Below are positions 164-27,327 of a DNA stretch of 32,240 bases, one piece after another. Below the pieces are notes generated by a model. That model did no database searches. It was not told the origin of the DNA and saw only the letters and a program-made list of their open reading frames with translations. The first letter of the stretch is position 1. Each line of letters begins with the position of its first letter. Origin of the DNA: a virus; the IMG/VR virus record IMGVR_UViG_3300048928_000149, positions 1 to 32,240 of that record; one strand, given 5' to 3'. The position numbers and the translations under genes were made by a program.

Positions 164-225
164 GTTTACAGACTACCCATTTACTGCCCTGTGGATAACA
201 AGGTCATCCGGGTTTGCCTGTAAAC
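164..225. repeat. 8-bp inverted repeat flanking a DnaA-box-like site, next to att
   Basis: GTTTACAG (164-171) and CTGTAAAC (218-225) are perfect inverted copies. Between them TGTGGATAA (190-198) matches the DnaA box TTATCCACA exactly on the minus strand. The position beside the att core would suit integrase or excisionase arm sites, but nothing in the sequence proves this. The right copy lies inside the 3' end of the integrase gene. Confidence 0.35.
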
Positions 226-1274
226 CGTTTTTGGCGATTCTCGATGCTCTCAACCGCCGCGCTCGACACCAGATAGTGCTTGCGGATGATTCCCTCGGCG
301 TCCTTTTCGGAGTGGCCAGACACCTCGGCAATTTCCTTTATCGACGCACCATTCCGATAGGCGAGGGTGACGAACGTTCCTCGCAGGTCGTGGAATGTCT
401 TCCCTTCGATGCCTGCTTTCTCTACGGCCTTGCGCCAAGACGATTTGAAGCCGGTCGCCCAAGGCTGGCCCTGACTATTGGTCAAAATCGTGACAGAGTT
501 GCCACGCTGCAACCCGTCCAGATAGCTCTTTAGCTCCTCCGAAACTTTCATTCGGACATGCGCCCCGGTCTTCGACTGGCGCAGGTAGATGGAATGGCCG
601 TCGTAAGCCTTCCATGTGAGCTTGAGCAAATCCCCCTGTCTCTGTCCCGTCCAGATCGCCAGCATAAGGGCGCGCACCAATGGCTCGGCCGCCGGCTTAA
701 TCTCCCACTTGCCGTCCTTGTCTTTTTTCCCATATCGGAATGTATGGATATCCTCGTCGGTCCATATCACGTCTCGGCGGCTGCCGTCGCTGACCTTCTC
801 GACGCGTTCCAGCGGGTGGCGCTCGATCATTTCCCGATCCAGGCCGAACCAGAGGATGCGTTTCAGCACGCTCATGTAGAGGTCGGCTTTGCGCGGGTGC
901 GTCTCGGCTATCTCGTCACGCCATTCAAGAAACGTCGTTCGAGCGCCCGGCGCCGATATTTTTGAGGCTGGCATGTCGAAGAACATTGTCTCAATCGCTT
1001 TGATAGCGAAATCGTATCCTTCTCGCGTGCTCGGCTTTAGGTTCAGGTAGGTCGGAGATTTGAGATATTGGCGGATGATCTCAGCCAGACAGCCGTTATA
1101 GGGCGCATCTTTTCTGTCGCGTGTCAGCCGCACATATTCAGCGATGAACTCATTTTGGTTCTTGGGGTCGGCCTTCATCCTCGGGCCGCCCCGCCATGCG
1201 TAGAAATAGAAAGTGCTGGTACCGTCAGCGAGTACCTTTTTGACGCGGTGAATACCCACTAGATTTACCTTCAC
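204..1274 (-). CDS. int: Tyrosine recombinase, phage integrase
   Basis: Catalyses integration and excision at the adjacent tRNA-Pro att site. The C-terminal catalytic domain has the full tyrosine-recombinase set: Arg212 (TGQRQGDL), Lys235 (SKTGA), His295 and Arg298 (HDLR), His321 (SGHS) and the nucleophile Tyr334 (KHYL). The N-terminal half holds the SAM-like core-binding domain (about 60-160). I choose the GTG at 1274, giving 356 aa, because GGAGG stands 7 nt upstream and the protein then begins MKVNLVGIHR, the usual start of rhizobial homologues. Longer readings (TTG 1367, ATG 1310) lack an SD. It is the last gene of the leftward operon and overlaps the preceding gene by 50 nt. Confidence 0.95.
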   Translation of the reverse strand: MKVNLVGIHRVKKVLADGTSTFYFYAWRGGPRMKADPKNQNEFIAEYVRLTRDRKDAPYNGCLAEIIRQYLKSPTYLNLKPSTREGYDFAIKAIETMFFDMPASKISAPGARTTFLEWRDEIAETHPRKADLYMSVLKRILWFGLDREMIERHPLERVEKVSDGSRRDVIWTDEDIHTFRYGKKDKDGKWEIKPAAEPLVRALMLAIWTGQRQGDLLKLTWKAYDGHSIYLRQSKTGAHVRMKVSEELKSYLDGLQRGNSVTILTNSQGQPWATGFKSSWRKAVEKAGIEGKTFHDLRGTFVTLAYRNGASIKEIAEVSGHSEKDAEGIIRKHYLVSSAAVESIENRQKRFTGKPG

Positions 1275-1476
1275 GGCGCGCCCTCCATTCGGAGAGGCTA
1301 TTGCCACCATATGCAATGTCGCGGTCAACGGACGATTGCTTGTGATTATCGGGGATATCGGGGGCAACTCGTATTATTTTGCCATCGATCTCGATTTCGA
1401 CACGGACGCCTTTCTCCAAGGCTATATCCGCCATGCGTTTAAGGTCCGCGGATTTGACCAGTGCGGGTGCCGTCAT
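1225..1476 (-). CDS. Small conserved protein next to integrase
   Basis: 83 aa starting MTAPALVKSADLKRMADIA, with a strong AAGGAG upstream of the ATG at 1476. The centre reads as a helix followed by a beta hairpin (VRVEIEIDGKIIRVAPD). Small proteins of this pattern often sit directly before integrases in rhizobial prophages (family impression, not searched). It overlaps int by 50 nt and the previous gene by 4 nt (ATGA). A role as excisionase or recombination directionality factor is possible from position only; no HTH is visible. Confidence 0.75.
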   Translation of the reverse strand: MTAPALVKSADLKRMADIALEKGVRVEIEIDGKIIRVAPDIPDNHKQSSVDRDIAYGGNSLSEWRARREGKSSGYSPRQKGTR

Positions 1477-12162: not shown

Positions 12163-12414
12163 ATGTCTCGCATTTACGATCGGATTCGAAGAACGTACAA
12201 AACCCGGAATGACGAGATCATTGCCGGGCTGATCGAATCCGCAGGCGCTCAGCAGCCACCAGCGCCGGAGGTCGTCATCAGAAGGAAGGCGACCGAGATT
12301 TCAGCAATCATGGCGTCGATTCACGGCGGCGACTGGCGGGTAGAGATTGATCACCAGTCTGGCTTTGTTCTGATTGCTCCTCGACCGGCTCGTGAGCAAC
12401 GAACCTCCCGATGA
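12163..12414 (+). CDS. Small conserved phage protein, overlaps repressor tail
   Basis: 83 aa from ATG 12163 with GGAG 6 nt upstream (GTG 12148 is possible but lacks an SD). It begins MSRIYDRIRRTYKTRND and contains IMASIHGGDWRVEIDHQSGFVLIAPR, a stretch of a kind I have seen in other alphaproteobacterial phage proteins. Its last 107 nt run antisense to the 3' end of the repressor gene, so the two converge and overlap. Confidence 0.6.
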   Translation: MSRIYDRIRRTYKTRNDEIIAGLIESAGAQQPPAPEVVIRRKATEISAIMASIHGGDWRVEIDHQSGFVLIAPRPAREQRTSR

Positions 12415-12787
12415 TATCGATCGCCAGCCCCAGCTGCGTGTGGTCCACACCGAATGCCAGCAACGCCGAGCGCAGCGCGCGCGCCGCTCTTTCCGTATCC
12501 GGGTCTCTGCCCTCTTGAAGCGGATTGACCGCGATTAGCTCCCATGGCTCGCATCTGAGCGCAGGAGCAATCGCCTCAAGCGTAACCTGGCTGTAGCCCT
12601 GCTTACCATTCACAAGCTGATTGATTGACGAGGTCGCATAGCCTGCCTCTGCCGCAAGCTGTTCCTGCGTCATGTCGCGGTGCTTCATCCACTCCGAGAT
12701 GAAGTGGCCCTTGCGCCCATTTTCCGTGTTCAGTTTCCGCCTTGTGCCCATCCTCAGAATGTCGCCCATCCAGAAAATGCATTCCAT
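12308..12787 (-). CDS. XRE-family immunity repressor (CI-like)
   Basis: Up to 159 aa. It has an HTH at about 38-62 (MTQEQLAAEAGYATSSINQLVNGKQGYS) followed by TLEAIAPALRCEPWELI, a classic Cro/CI fold. The C-terminal part (ERAARALRSALLAFG...) is a helical tail, not a LexA/S24 self-cleaving domain, so induction is probably not by RecA-driven autocleavage. The start is unsure: ATG 12787 has no clear SD and may be leaderless; ATG 12769 and 12751 are alternatives. It faces the Cro-like gene across the operator array. Confidence 0.85.
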   Translation of the reverse strand: MECIFWMGDILRMGTRRKLNTENGRKGHFISEWMKHRDMTQEQLAAEAGYATSSINQLVNGKQGYSQVTLEAIAPALRCEPWELIAVNPLQEGRDPDTERAARALRSALLAFGVDHTQLGLAIDIIGRFVAHEPVEEQSEQSQTGDQSLPASRRRESTP

Positions 12788-12792
12788 AGCGT

Positions 12793-12835
12793 TTGACTGA
12801 AAGTTTTCGCTTGACTGAAATTCGTTTTGACTGAA
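12793..12835 (+). promoter_or_regulatory. Right operator array and promoter (OR/PR)
   Basis: Three exact copies of TTGACTGAA at 12793-12801, 12811-12819 and 12827-12835, in direct orientation with 18 and 16 bp periods. TTGACT of the first copy is also a good -35, with TGAAAT 17 nt later at 12816-12821 as -10. A repressor bound to any copy would cover this promoter. The copies match those at the left promoter. Confidence 0.8.
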
Positions 12836-12844
12836 TATGGGGGT

Positions 12845-13063
12845 ATGAAAAAGCTAATCGAGTTCTTCAAAGCAAATCGCGGGACGCAGAAGAAGCTGGC
12901 CGAGCATCTCGGTCTGCAGCCTTCGACGGTATCGCAATGGAAATCGGTTCCCCCGGAATACGTGCCGGAGGTGTCGGAGTTCACCGGGATTTCTCGCGAG
13001 GAACTCATCCCCGAAGTTTTCCGACCCGCTCGTGAAGCGCAAGCGCAGGAGCCAGCGGCATGA
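12845..13063 (+). CDS. Cro/YdaS-like regulator
   Basis: 72 aa from ATG 12845, with GGGGG just before it. IEFFKANRGTQKKLAEHLGLQPSTVSQWKS is an HTH of the YdaS/Cro type, followed by VPPEYVPEVSEFTGISREEL, the usual second half of the family. It is the first gene of the rightward operon and would oppose the CI-like repressor at the TTGACTGAA sites. It overlaps the next gene by 4 nt. Confidence 0.85.
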   Translation: MKKLIEFFKANRGTQKKLAEHLGLQPSTVSQWKSVPPEYVPEVSEFTGISREELIPEVFRPAREAQAQEPAA

Positions 13064-14145: not shown

Positions 14146-14253
14146 ATGAAGAAGGTCACCAAGCAGAAGCCGATCGTCATCGATATGGAGGCCTTTGAGG
14201 CTGAACTGATGGCTGAGGTTGCCCGCATCAACGATGAACGGGTGGCGGCATGA
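14146..14253 (+). CDS. Micro-protein (35 aa)
   Basis: MKKVTKQKPIVIDMEAFEAE..., a short charged helix. GAGGGG lies at good spacing before the ATG and its stop overlaps the next ATG by 4 nt. Confidence 0.5.
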   Translation: MKKVTKQKPIVIDMEAFEAELMAEVARINDERVAA

Positions 14254-14351
14254 CCGACACGACCATTTTCATCGGCGGTGCGGCGTTTCTGGCGGCTGTT
14301 ACTGTCCTCGTCATCCTGGCGCACTTCACGGTATCGGGACCTCGCAAATGA
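14250..14351 (+). CDS. Single-pass membrane micro-protein (33 aa)
   Basis: Nearly the whole product is one hydrophobic helix (IFIGGAAFLAAVTVLVILAHF). It is coupled by ATGA overlaps on both sides. It resembles many phage micro membrane peptides; role unknown. Confidence 0.5.
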   Translation: MTDTTIFIGGAAFLAAVTVLVILAHFTVSGPRK

Positions 14352-14545
14352 CGGCTGCGTATGCATTCAAAATCATTTCGGGCCTGCTTTTGACGGCCGT
14401 CCTGGTCTACGCCAGCGCGTTTCTGTTGGCTGTCGCACAAGCCATTATCGTGCCGGATGTCCCGGCCGAAGTGGCGTGGCTCAAGGCTCTTTACTACTCG
14501 CTCGGTGTCGCCGCCGGTTGGTGGACATGGGCGTCGAAAATCTGA
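14348..14545 (+). CDS. Small two-pass membrane protein (65 aa)
   Basis: Two hydrophobic segments (about 8-36, FKIISGLLLTAVLVYASAF onward, and about 48-62, YYSLGVAAGWWTWAS). Size and topology would suit a holin, but it lies in the early operon with no lysis gene nearby, so I do not call it one. Confidence 0.6.
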   Translation: MTAAYAFKIISGLLLTAVLVYASAFLLAVAQAIIVPDVPAEVAWLKALYYSLGVAAGWWTWASKI

Positions 14546-14797
14546 GCGGCACGTCCCCCTGACGCTCAGCGCTGGTCGCTTTCATCCCGCTCCCGATGGG
14601 CGACCAGCACACTTACTAACGTCCTCCCCCGCAGCCTTGCGATGACTGCGGCGAGGGGGACGGCAAGTGGTTCGAACCCGACGAGTGCGGCGGGCCTGGA
14701 GACGGCGGTTTGATTGGCATCTGTGCCGCCGTCTCCATCAGTTTCAAAGCCTTTGTGCATGTTGGCCTCCGTTGACGCCGCCAACCTCGCACAAAGG
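14542..14797 (+). promoter_or_regulatory. Multi-hairpin segment that pairs the next gene's Shine-Dalgarno
   Basis: Consecutive perfect stems: CTGAGCG/CGCTCAG (14542-14548, 14563-14569); GCTGGTCGC/GCGACCAGC (14571-14579, 14600-14608); CCGCAG/CTGCGG (14629-14634, 14646-14651); a 12-bp stem TGGAGACGGCGG with its complement (14697-14708, 14726-14737); CCTTTGTGC/GCACAAAGG (14750-14758, 14789-14797) with an inner GTTGG/CCAAC. The last stem buries AAAGG, the likely SD of the gene at 14805. A regulatory leader RNA is the simplest reading. Confidence 0.6.
14596..14775 (+). pseudogene. Small Cys-rich ORF interrupted by a stop codon
   Basis: From ATG 14596 the frame reads MGDQHTY, then TAA at 14617, and stays open for 51 more codons with zinc-knuckle-like CDDCGEGDGKWFEPDECGGP. 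No start codon lies between the TAA and the Cys motif. It looks like a 59-residue zinc protein broken by one nonsense change. It overlaps the hairpin region, so the coding look may be partly accidental. Confidence 0.4.
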
Positions 14798-14804
14798 ATG
14801 AAGA

Positions 14805-15212
14805 ATGTCTGACAATAGGTTTTCACGAAACGTAAATTTTGTTTCAGAGGATGAAATGTCTAGTACTGCGTTAGTCGAAGCAAAGGACTGGTACGACAAG
14901 CTTATGGCCTTGGAATTTCGAGGCCGTGGTGATCGTGAAAAGTCCGCCCGTGGGCGAGTGGCCGATAACATCGGTGTCCCTGAGACGTGGCTGTTCGACC
15001 TTCAATACAAGTCCAGTGGCAAGAAAGACGTACGCGGTGCGCTCTATCGAGCCCTCATGCTTGGCATCCAGAAATACGACGACCTTTGCCAGAAAAACGA
15101 GGAAGCGGCGGATCGGTATAAGGCCGATCGCCTGAAACGACGAGGCAATCATGAAACGGCTGACGAAAAGCCTGCTCAGGCGGGCTTGGGAATGGATTCG
15201 TCTGAGGTTTGA
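14805..15212 (+). CDS. Conserved phage hypothetical protein (135 aa)
   Basis: Starts MSDNRFSRNVNFVSEDEMSS. The core RVADNIGVPETWLFDLQYKSSGKKDVRGALYRALMLGIQKYDDLC is helical with a possible HTH at its start. I associate it with rhizobial prophages but know no function. Its SD (AAAGG 14793-14797) is inside a 9-bp stem, so translation may be controlled by that structure. Confidence 0.65.
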   Translation: MSDNRFSRNVNFVSEDEMSSTALVEAKDWYDKLMALEFRGRGDREKSARGRVADNIGVPETWLFDLQYKSSGKKDVRGALYRALMLGIQKYDDLCQKNEEAADRYKADRLKRRGNHETADEKPAQAGLGMDSSEV

Positions 15213-15227
15213 GAAAAGGAAATCGAG

Positions 15228-15887
15228 ATGACCGATATCGAAGTGAATGCACAGTTCGTCACAATCAAGGTTCCTGACGATATCGACATGTCGAAGCCAA
15301 TCCCATTGCGCATTGCGCGGAATGAAGAGGCGCCGAACCTCTGGGCAACGACTGATGGTCGCCGCGTTTTTAACAGCGAAGAGTGGGCGGTCGAATCCAT
15401 GAAAATGGATACGCAGGAATACAAGGACCACCGAACAAAGACTATTGCCGCCGGTAGGCTTGCCCGCGCTGAGATCGTTGAAAATTACGATGGCTGGGTC
15501 ACCACAACGGGTGACGAAGACGACTATGCCCAGGATGTTGCAGAGCTTCTGGAAAAGCATGGCGACCAATTGGCTTGGGCGGGAGTTGCTGCCGAAGATA
15601 TCCCAGCGCAACTGCCTGCATGGGCGTTTTGCTGCACAGAAGGCGGCTTTGATTTCGACCTGGAATCGCAACTCGAAAGCTACCTCGCTGATGAGCATCA
15701 CGAGAACGCTCGTGATTTTCTGGTGGACGAGAAAGAGCTTTGGGACTTTTGGAGTGCTTGGGTCGAAAAACAGAAGAGCCTCACCAGCTACTTCATCGAC
15801 ACCAAGCGCATCGTTGTCATCGACCGCGAACGATATGAAACTGAACTGGCGGCGGCAAAGGCTTTCCTCGAAGGAGAGAAGCCATGA
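15228..15887 (+). CDS. Acidic hypothetical protein (219 aa)
   Basis: AAGGAA precedes the ATG. It is a strongly acidic, helical protein rich in Trp, Glu and Asp (DEDDYAQDVAELLEKHGDQ, SQLESYLADEHHE). Acidic early proteins of this sort can mimic DNA, but nothing specific shows that. It overlaps the nuclease gene by 4 nt. Confidence 0.65.
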   Translation: MTDIEVNAQFVTIKVPDDIDMSKPIPLRIARNEEAPNLWATTDGRRVFNSEEWAVESMKMDTQEYKDHRTKTIAAGRLARAEIVENYDGWVTTTGDEDDYAQDVAELLEKHGDQLAWAGVAAEDIPAQLPAWAFCCTEGGFDFDLESQLESYLADEHHENARDFLVDEKELWDFWSAWVEKQKSLTSYFIDTKRIVVIDRERYETELAAAKAFLEGEKP

Positions 15888-25325: not shown

Positions 25326-25832
25326 ATGGCAGAAGGCGAGAGAGGGCGCCCAACGGCATACACGCCGGAGCTCGCTGCCCTGATACTCAATCAGATCGCG
25401 GCAGGAACGAGCCTTCGCAAGATTTGTGAAGCGGACGACATGCCTGCCGAAAGCACAGTGAGGCTTTGGGCAACAGAGGATCGCAACGGTTTTTCTGCGC
25501 AATACACACGCGCAAGAGAGGCCCAGATGGATGCTCTGGCGGAGGATTTGCTTGAAATTGCAGACGATGACGACGCCGACGTGAACCGCGCAAGGCTTCG
25601 TGTCGACACCCGTAAATGGCTGATGAGCAAGATTGCGCCCAAGCGGTTCGGGGATCGCAAAACCCACGAGGTCAGCGGCCCGAATGGCGGTGCAGTCAGA
25701 GTTAACGTGTCTGGGATGAGTGATGAACAGTTGGCCGCACTTGAATCAGCGCTCATTGGACTTGCCGCTACCGCCCTTACAGATGCTGGAGGTGGTGAGG
25801 TCGGAGAGGCAGAAGAGGGAAGCGAGACGTAA
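25326..25832 (+). CDS. terS: Terminase small subunit
   Basis: 168 aa. GRPTAYTPELAALILNQIAAGTSLRKICEADDMPAESTVRLWATE is the N-terminal HTH of small terminases that bind the packaging site; the helical DALAEDLLEIADDDDADVNRARLRVDTRKWLMSKIAPKRFGDR region mediates oligomer formation. The C-terminus (SDEQLAALESALIGLAA) would contact the large subunit. The large terminase gene overlaps its end by 50 nt. Confidence 0.9.
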   Translation: MAEGERGRPTAYTPELAALILNQIAAGTSLRKICEADDMPAESTVRLWATEDRNGFSAQYTRAREAQMDALAEDLLEIADDDDADVNRARLRVDTRKWLMSKIAPKRFGDRKTHEVSGPNGGAVRVNVSGMSDEQLAALESALIGLAATALTDAGGGEVGEAEEGSET

Positions 25833-27327
25833 TCTCGACCGTGAACTTGAACAGACAGGTGCGTCTCTATCGTCTTTCACCAAGGCGGCGTGGCACGTTC
25901 TGGAGCCTGGGCAGCCTTACAAGCACGGTTGGCATCTCGATGCTATCAGTGACCATCTGGAGGCGGTTACGGCAGGGCACATTACGCGGCTGCTGATCAA
26001 CATCCCGCCAGGCACAATGAAATCCTTGTCGGTTGGGGTCATGTGGCCCGCCTGGGAATGGGGGCCGAAGGGTTTCCCGCACCTTCGTTATCTCGGTACG
26101 TCGCACAGCCACCCGTTGGCCATCCGAGACAACCTCAAAATGAGGCGCCTCGTAGCGTCGGAATGGTATCAGGACCGATGGGGCGAACATGTTCAGCTTA
26201 TGGCTGACCAGAACGCCAAGCTAAAGTTTGAGAATACGGCAACAGGCTTTCGTGAGGCGATGGCTTTCACCGGCTTGACTGGTTCGCGCGGTGACAGGGT
26301 ACTGATTGATGACCCGCTGTCAGTCGACAACGCAAATTCGGACACGCAGCGAGAGGCGGTCAACGATACCTTTCGTGAATCGGTGCCAACGCGCCTGAAT
26401 AACCCGGATGGTTCGGCCATTATTGTGGTGATGCAGCGCCTGCATGAGAACGATGTGTCTGGCCTAATCCTCGCTAATGATTTCGGCTACGACCACCTCA
26501 TGCTCCCTATGGAGTTCGAACCGGAACGGCGCTGTTATACCTCGATCGGGTTTACCGACCCGCGCAAACATGAAGGCGAACTGCTCTTCCCCGATCGCTT
26601 CCCGCGCGAGGTGGTGGAGCGAGATAAAAAAATCATGCTCGCATACGCTGTTGCTGGCCAGTTCCAACAGCGGCCCGCGCCTCGTGAAGGCGGTTTGTTC
26701 AAGGCGGAATGGCTTAAGCCGTGCCAATTGAAGGATTTGCCGAAGAAAGAGACGCTGACGATCTATGGCGGTTCTGACTACGCGGTTACAGCAAACGGCG
26801 GCGACTACACCGTGCACGGCGTGGTTGGGCTTGATCCGCTCGGCCGCATGTGGCTGCTCGATCTATGGCGCAAGCAAACCTCATCCGATCAGTGGATAGA
26901 AGCATTCTGCGACATGGTGCTTGAATGGAGGCCGATAGGGTGGGCGGAAGAAACCGGGCAGATCAAGTCTGGTGTTGGCCCGTTCCGAGATAAGCGTATG
27001 AGAGAGCGTAGAGCCTACGTTGCGACAGAGGTTTTTCCTACTAGAGGTGACAAGGCGATCCGCGCACAATCTATCCGCGGACGTATGGCTTTGGACGGTA
27101 TCTATGTGCCGACAGACGCGCCTTGGTACGAACAATTCGTATCCGAACTGCTGACGTTCCCAGCCGGCAAGAATGACGATCAGGTGGATATGATTGGTCT
27201 CATCGGGCAATTGCTCGACACGATGTACACGAAGCCGCTCAAAGACCCAGACGAAGGCAAGACGAAGCCGCGTGACTGGTTCGAAGAACCTGATGATGAC
27301 GAAGCGACGGATTGGAAGGTTGCATAA
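25783..27327 (+). CDS. terL: Terminase large subunit
   Basis: 514 aa. The ATPase half has NIPPGTMKS (Walker A, 73-81) and LIDD (Walker B, 174-177); RLLINIPPG is typical of this branch. The nuclease half has Asp332 and Asp341 (GGSDYAVTANGGD), Glu390 (WAEETG) and KNDDQVD (463-469), the RNase H-like acidic set. It packages DNA into the prohead using ATP. The start is not certain: ATG 25783 has no good SD; ATG 25723 with GGGATGAG upstream is a longer option. The stop overlaps the portal start (TAATG). Confidence 0.95.
   Translation: MLEVVRSERQKREARRNLDRELEQTGASLSSFTKAAWHVLEPGQPYKHGWHLDAISDHLEAVTAGHITRLLINIPPGTMKSLSVGVMWPAWEWGPKGFPHLRYLGTSHSHPLAIRDNLKMRRLVASEWYQDRWGEHVQLMADQNAKLKFENTATGFREAMAFTGLTGSRGDRVLIDDPLSVDNANSDTQREAVNDTFRESVPTRLNNPDGSAIIVVMQRLHENDVSGLILANDFGYDHLMLPMEFEPERRCYTSIGFTDPRKHEGELLFPDRFPREVVERDKKIMLAYAVAGQFQQRPAPREGGLFKAEWLKPCQLKDLPKKETLTIYGGSDYAVTANGGDYTVHGVVGLDPLGRMWLLDLWRKQTSSDQWIEAFCDMVLEWRPIGWAEETGQIKSGVGPFRDKRMRERRAYVATEVFPTRGDKAIRAQSIRGRMALDGIYVPTDAPWYEQFVSELLTFPAGKNDDQVDMIGLIGQLLDTMYTKPLKDPDEGKTKPRDWFEEPDDDEATDWKVA

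What the first reader, a model, noticed from the sequence alone, without database searches (positions are those of the whole stretch)
14542..14797. Multi-hairpin leader that hides the Shine-Dalgarno of the replication-side operon
Several strong stems in a row fill the only large gap inside the right operon. The last one pairs AAAGG of the 14805 gene in a 9-bp stem, closed further by GTTGG/CCAAC. This looks like an RNA switch or protein-binding leader that sets when the second half of the operon is translated.
Basis: partly seen in the sequence, partly recalled or inferred. Interest (0 to 1): 0.72.

Follow-up and report, generated by a model that had tools for sequence, protein, structure and literature searches.

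The report
Phage hairpin array over antisense gene
A run of RNA hairpins in the early operon of rhizobial temperate phages is real and conserved by compensating base changes: the last hairpin hides the ribosome-binding site of the next gene, the first two resemble bacterial small RNAs that block ribosome-binding sites, and the supposed gap in fact carries an unannotated gene on the other strand.

Summary
Five strong stem-loops fill 14542-14797, the most stable of 126 stretches of the window, and the last one pairs the AAAGG of the 14805 gene as described. Hiding of that Shine-Dalgarno (SD) is conserved: across 36 relatives the SD is paired with mean probability 0.90, against 0.49 for 18 control genes, and arms pair within a locus far better than between loci. 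But the 'gap' is not empty. A conserved antisense ORF (14760-14566, minus strand, 64 aa, SD GGAGG) runs through the hairpins in about 29 loci, and two public records annotate it as a gene. Hairpin stability exceeds that of synonymous-codon shuffles (mean z -3.8), so structure and protein are both under selection. In relatives the first two hairpins carry CCUCCUCCC loops and match the Rfam sRNAs ar14 and CcsR1; the window's own loops have decayed. Similar twin hairpins occur in unrelated phages. I read the region as a module: anti-SD 'cuckoo'-like hairpins, an antisense gene and an SD-occluding hairpin. The trigger and the functions are untested.

The parts
14542..14569 (+). H1, stem CTGAGCG/CGCTCAG directly after the stop of the upstream small ORF; counterpart of anti-SD hairpin 1 of relatives (loop here GUCCCCCUG, motif decayed); also lies just beyond the 3' end of the antisense ORF
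14571..14608 (+). H2, stem GCTGGTCGC/GCGACCAGC; counterpart of anti-SD hairpin 2 of relatives (loop here CCGCUCCC; L003 has ACCUCCC)
14620..14662 (+). H3, about 14-bp GC-rich stem (CGTCCTCCCCCGCAG/CTGCGG-CGAGGGGGACG) inside the antisense ORF
14698..14736 (+). H6, perfect 11-bp stem GGAGACGGCGG/CCGCCGTCTCC inside the antisense ORF; a stem at the same place in relatives
14750..14797 (+). H7, SD-occluding hairpin: CCTTTGTGC/GCACAAAGG with inner GTTGG/CCAAC; 3' arm holds the SD of the 14805 gene, 5' arm holds the start of the antisense ORF
14793..14797 (+). SD (AAAGG) of the 14805 gene, P(paired) about 1.0
14566..14760 (-). Antisense ORF, 64 aa (MHKGFETDGDGG...RERDESDQR), conserved family in about 29 loci, no known family match
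14766..14770 (-). SD (GGAGG) of the antisense ORF, in the apical part of H7
14805..15212 (+). Regulated gene (PHROG 35370, unknown function; all-helical model with weak resemblance to XRE-type HTH proteins)

Best explanation
This is a compact phage regulatory module read on both strands. (1) The rightward early transcript, coming from the cro side, carries a chain of hairpins. The last one (H7) hides the SD of the 14805 gene, so a read-through transcript is translated poorly until H7 is opened or cut. That H7 occludes the SD in the folded RNA is supported by comparison; that it represses translation is inferred; what opens it is unknown. (2) The first two hairpins derive from a twin anti-SD element like the alphaproteobacterial ar14/CcsR ('cuckoo') sRNAs. 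In relatives their CCUCCUCCC loops could pair with SDs of host or phage mRNAs; in this window the loops have decayed. The resemblance in relatives is shown; the action is inferred. (3) The middle hairpins lie in a short antisense gene whose RBS sits in the same palindrome as H7. Selection keeps both the protein and the hairpins. Most likely the hairpins keep the untranslated sense RNA folded, protected from Rho, RNase E and pairing with the antisense mRNA (inferred).
For: H7: SD paired with P = 0.90 over 36 diverged loci against 0.49 in 18 control genes; fixed-window arm-swap test 0/10,000. H1/H2: arm-swap 0/10,000 for 24 and 28 loci; CCTCC/CTCCC/CTCCT in a hairpin loop in 20 of 25 loci against 2.35 expected from shuffles; Rfam ar14 at this spot in L012 (E 1.3e-5) and in 8 of 10 further loci, best L006 50.9 bits, E 2.6e-6; G.U on the + strand against G.U on the minus strand 61:18, p = 1.3e-6. 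Antisense gene: ATG with AAGGAG/GGAGG-type SD mostly 43-51 nt from the sense start; pN/pS 0.50 in its frame, above 1 in four other frames and 0.60 in p1; annotated as CDS in Rhizobium phage RHph_N3_2 and an S. meliloti prophage. Both layers at once: + RNA more stable than synonymous-codon shuffles, mean z -3.8, window -2.96.
Against: No transcript, protein or phenotype data. The window's H1/H2 loops lack CCUCCUCCC and give no Rfam match; no locus tested reaches the ar14 gathering score. H1/H2 boundaries for the arm-swap test were drawn by eye. RNAalifold on a sequence alignment of H7 finds no consensus structure, because the helix register slides between loci. pN/pS of 0.5 is only moderate constraint, and the antisense protein models poorly (pLDDT 57). 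The antisense SD is less consistently paired (0.66). G.U asymmetry at H7 alone is not significant (p = 0.06). The antisense ORFs were picked as open frames, so absence of stops inside them is not evidence.
Confidence: 0.66

Rival explanations
1. Insulation: the hairpins mainly separate overlapping transcription units. H1/H2 end convergent transcripts, and H7 silences read-through messages in both directions (as fold-back inhibition does in IS elements), with no dedicated switch.
For: Antisense ORF and sense operon converge on H1/H2 and diverge from H7; both RBSs lie in the H7 palindrome; arrays followed by a different downstream gene occur in L193-L196.
Against: No terminator-like U tract in the window region (0 found); the conserved CCUCCUCCC loops and + strand G.U bias of H1/H2 are not needed for insulation.
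Confidence: 0.2
2. A classical single RNA switch or protein-binding leader: all hairpins form one regulatory aptamer-type leader of the 14805 gene.
For: Strong structure and a conserved SD-occluding hairpin.
Against: No conserved aptamer-like core: stems differ completely between relatives and hairpin number varies; no riboswitch match; middle hairpins lie in a coding sequence on the other strand.
Confidence: 0.1
3. The antisense ORF is a by-product: palindromes and anti-SD loops on the + strand automatically create SD-like sites and open GC-rich frames on the minus strand.
For: The H7 loop CUCCU reads as an SD on the other strand; other frames are sometimes open in GC-rich sequence.
Against: Aligned N-terminal, (V/I)xPF and LG..AVVxRL motifs over about 29 loci; lowest pN/pS in that frame; independent gene calls in two records.
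Confidence: 0.12
4. DNA-level function: cruciforms, operators or a replication origin.
For: Perfect palindromes near early and replication genes; a separate conserved palindrome TTTCCGNNNNCGGAAA lies just downstream.
Against: G.U pairs on the + strand outnumber those on the minus strand 61:18 in H1/H2, which DNA palindromes would not show; stem sequences are not conserved as operators would be.
Confidence: 0.05

Closest known systems
Alphaproteobacterial sRNA family ar14 (RF02344; NfeR1, SmelA075) and the 'cuckoo' RNA family
   Same: Adjacent hairpins on one strand, CCUCCUCCC-type anti-SD loops, highly diverged stems (PMC3927594, PMC10746234, PMC4504443); best Rfam match of the relatives
   Different: Two rather than three hairpins of this type, phage-borne, placed directly after an operon ORF, the second overlapping an antisense gene; scores below the gathering cut-off; motif decayed in the window itself
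CcsR1-4 sRNAs co-transcribed with ccaF1 in Rhodobacter
   Same: Anti-SD hairpins directly downstream of a small protein gene in one operon transcript (PMC10253847); RF02791 sub-threshold matches in L006, L012, L025 and L087
   Different: Upstream ORF here is a short hydrophobic protein not tested for DUF1127; processing by RNase E unknown
SD-occluding leader hairpins of phage and IS genes (fold-back inhibition in IS10, leader of lambda N; from my own knowledge)
   Same: An upstream 5' arm pairs with the SD, so read-through mRNA is translated poorly
   Different: Here the palindrome lies between two head-to-head ORFs and covers both RBSs; no trigger known

Membership tests
ar14 / cuckoo anti-SD sRNA | Two to four adjacent hairpins | tested here: met
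   H1 and H2 adjacent in the window and in relatives
ar14 / cuckoo anti-SD sRNA | CCUCCUCCC in each loop | tested here: not met
   Not met in the window (loops CGUCCCCC and CCGCUCCC). Met in relatives such as L006, L012 and, with small variation, L025
ar14 / cuckoo anti-SD sRNA | Stem sequences variable but complementary | tested here: met
   Arm-swap permutation 0/10,000 for H1 and for H2
ar14 / cuckoo anti-SD sRNA | Rfam score at or above gathering cut-off (58.8 bits) | tested here: not met
   Best relative 50.9 bits; no match in the window
ar14 / cuckoo anti-SD sRNA | Discrete expressed small RNA that silences mRNAs through the loops | not testable with these tools
   No expression data
SD-occluding translational leader | SD sequestered by an upstream arm, conserved by compensating change | tested here: met
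SD-occluding translational leader | Measured repression and a trigger that opens the stem | not testable with these tools
   Needs reporters and probing
Known riboswitch or leader family in Rfam | Covariance-model match | tested here: not met
   No gathering-level match in the window; only chance-level matches in 14250-15250
Intrinsic terminator pair | GC-rich stem followed by a U tract | tested here: not met
   0 terminator-like sites in 14200-15300 on either strand
Protein-coding gene (antisense ORF) | Conserved start with SD, protein-level conservation, purifying selection | tested here: met
   expression not tested

The most novel reading that the evidence does not exclude
A new kind of phage control module in Alphaproteobacteria: phages carry cuckoo-type anti-SD hairpins inside early operons, fused to an antisense gene whose coding sequence has evolved as a chain of RNA hairpins, with one palindrome that hides the start sites of two head-to-head genes on both strands. 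The phage RNA would titrate or block SDs, of host or phage mRNAs, during the lysis-lysogeny decision.
Probability: 0.3. Interest if true: 0.82.

Novelty: new variant of a known kind. Interest (0 to 1): 0.62.

Why it matters
Anti-SD sRNAs with CCUCCUCCC loops are known as host regulators in rhizobia and Rhodobacter, and I found no held paper that contains both the motif and the word bacteriophage. Finding them in phage early operons, with dozens of diverged natural variants, gives a ready set for testing how phages use this RNA type. The overlap of a conserved antisense gene with selected hairpins is an unusual case of double constraint, and several of the records examined leave the gene unannotated.

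Tried and rejected
Rfam at gathering threshold on the window: nothing. DNA similarity of the leader itself to phages and plasmids: only chance-level pieces. Single-sequence protein scan of genome contigs: no relatives; an alignment query solved that. The first synonymous-shuffle run timed out and was repeated smaller. Antisense protein: no PHROG, Pfam or NCBIfam match above chance and a low-confidence model. 14805 protein: no significant PDB sequence match, weak XRE-HTH-like fold matches only. Stop-codon counts per frame were set aside as evidence because the ORFs had been chosen as open frames. CsrA-type GGA hairpins on the minus strand were considered and dropped, because G.U bias points to the + strand.

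Full report
WHAT IS THERE. The window is the left part of a temperate phage genome: integrase at 204-1367 (minus), CI/Cro-like regulators around 12308-13063, large terminase at 25720-27327. Its nearest named relative is Sinorhizobium phage phiLM21. Five strong stem-loops fill 14542-14797. I number them H1, H2, H3, H6 and H7 to match the seven-hairpin arrays of relatives: H1 14542-14569, H2 14571-14608, H3 14620-14662, H6 14698-14736, H7 14750-14797. The segment 14520-14830 folds with z = -3.4 and no shuffle as stable. The 256-nt stretch is the most stable of 126 in the window.

RELATIVES. A single-sequence search with the 14805 protein found only two near-identical contigs. Searches with the phiLM21 homologue and then with an alignment gave about 65 loci in rhizobial prophages and viral contigs (Ensifer, Rhizobium, Shinella, Phyllobacterium, Martelella and others); identities of the aligned representatives to the window protein run from about 62% down to 26%. 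In most of them the same position holds a hairpin array of different sequence.

H7, THE SD-HIDING HAIRPIN. In 36 diverged loci the SD of the sense gene is paired with mean probability 0.90; it exceeds 0.5 in all 35 loci where an SD is recognisable. For 18 control genes of the window the mean is 0.49. With a fixed 68-nt window and no hairpin selection, pairing the 5' half of one locus with the 3' half of another is much weaker than within loci (-22.9 against -17.7 kcal/mol), and 0 of 10,000 permutations reach the observed mean. An alignment-based consensus fold fails because the helix slides in register between loci (for example window against phiLM21), so covariation had to be tested without an alignment. 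These permutations do not fully correct for shared ancestry, but the loci are strongly diverged.

H1 AND H2, ANTI-SD HAIRPINS. In relatives the loops of the first two hairpins read CCTCCTCCC or close to it. In 25 loci, 20 have a CCTCC/CTCCC/CTCCT motif in a predicted hairpin loop at this place, against 2.35 expected from shuffles. Arm-swap permutations give 0 of 10,000 for both hairpins (hairpin limits were drawn by eye). In an Rfam search limited to this region of L012 the top matches are ar14 (38.4 bits, E 1.3e-5) and CcsR1 (24.1 bits). In ten further loci, searched whole against 4227 families, 10 of the 13 matches with E up to 1 are ar14 or CcsR1, all at this spot and on the + strand, in 8 of the 10 loci (L006: 50.9 bits, E 2.6e-6). 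All stay below the gathering score of 58.8. G.U pairs that help the + strand RNA outnumber those that would help the minus strand RNA 61 to 18. The published ar14/cuckoo definition is two to four hairpins with CCUCCUCCC loops and variable stems (PMC3927594, PMC10746234, PMC4504443). The window's own loops (CGUCCCCC, CCGCUCCC) have lost the exact motif, while its close relative L003 has ACCUCCC. So the window copy works at most like a decayed version and is not filed as a member.

THE 'GAP' IS AN ANTISENSE GENE. On the minus strand an ORF runs from 14760 to 14566 (64 aa, SD GGAGG ten bases upstream). Homologues of 64-108 aa with AAGGAG- or GGAG-type SDs sit in the same place in about 29 loci, mostly 43-51 nt from the sense start codon. 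In a set of seven close homologues pN/pS is 0.50 in this frame. Four of the other frames give 1.07-1.41, and the frame sharing its third codon positions gives 0.60. Independent annotation calls the gene in Rhizobium phage RHph_N3_2 (QIG72974.1) and in an S. meliloti prophage on pSymB (UIJ95977.1), antisense to its neighbours; phiLM21 leaves it unannotated. It has no known family and its model is poor.

TWO LAYERS OF SELECTION. If the hairpins were only a by-product of the coding sequence, shuffling synonymous codons should not weaken them. It does: in 24 loci the + strand RNA over the ORF is more stable than its synonymous shuffles by a mean z of -3.8 (window -2.96), with no shuffle of 40 reaching the native energy in 20 loci. 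The region thus carries RNA structure and protein at once.

MODULARITY AND SPREAD. In L193-L196 the array is followed by a different downstream gene. Loci without this antisense family carry another antisense ORF in the same place with QLELF/QLSLF-like motifs, for example L029, L035, L041 and L058. Of the 80 loci read, 45 had both motifs in hairpin loops. Some of these are probably host sRNA genes next to prophages. Others lie between phage-type genes unrelated to this operon: L087 (before a helicase-like ORF), L107 (before an ORF that looks like a YqaJ-type exonuclease, from reading the sequence) and L143 (after a Cro-like gene). Sub-threshold ar14 matches were found at L087, L089, L107 and L143.

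MECHANISM. Supported by comparison: SD occlusion by H7, anti-SD-type H1/H2 in relatives, a conserved antisense gene, and structure selected on top of it. Inferred: that H7 lowers translation from read-through mRNA; that H1/H2 act in trans on SDs; that the middle hairpins keep the untranslated sense RNA folded against Rho, RNase E and pairing with the antisense message. Unknown: what opens H7, what the antisense protein does, and what the 14805 protein does (all-helical model, weak XRE-HTH-like matches).

VERDICT. It is a new variant of known kinds, of real interest because dozens of natural variants make it testable.

Noticed in passing
window 14821-14836; L001, L006, L020 and others: A palindrome TTTCCGNNNNCGGAAA at codons 6-11 of the 14805-family gene is kept at DNA level in 28 of 38 loci (always TCC for Ser, GGA for Gly in those loci); window copy TTTCACGAAACGTAAA. 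One near-perfect copy in phiLM21. Operator-like.
   Followed up: partly
L029, L031, L035, L039, L041, L049, L057, L058 upstream of the 14805 homologue: Where the hairpin-family antisense ORF is missing, a different antisense ORF with QLELF/QLSLF/QLEFPW-like motifs starts near the same place; the motif resembles the bacterial beta-clamp-binding motif (motif meaning from my own knowledge).
   Followed up: no
L087, L089, L107, L143 and others of L073-L152: Twin CCUCCUCCC hairpins between genes of unrelated phage contigs, several with sub-threshold ar14/CcsR1 matches.
   Followed up: partly
L001 3901-4143 (phiLM21_p023, AII27775.1): The annotated sense CDS phiLM21_p023 lies across the hairpins opposite the conserved antisense ORF and looks spurious.
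   Followed up: no
L193-L196: The same array is followed by a different downstream gene (GTG start in some) instead of the 14805 family, suggesting that the array moves as a module.
   Followed up: partly
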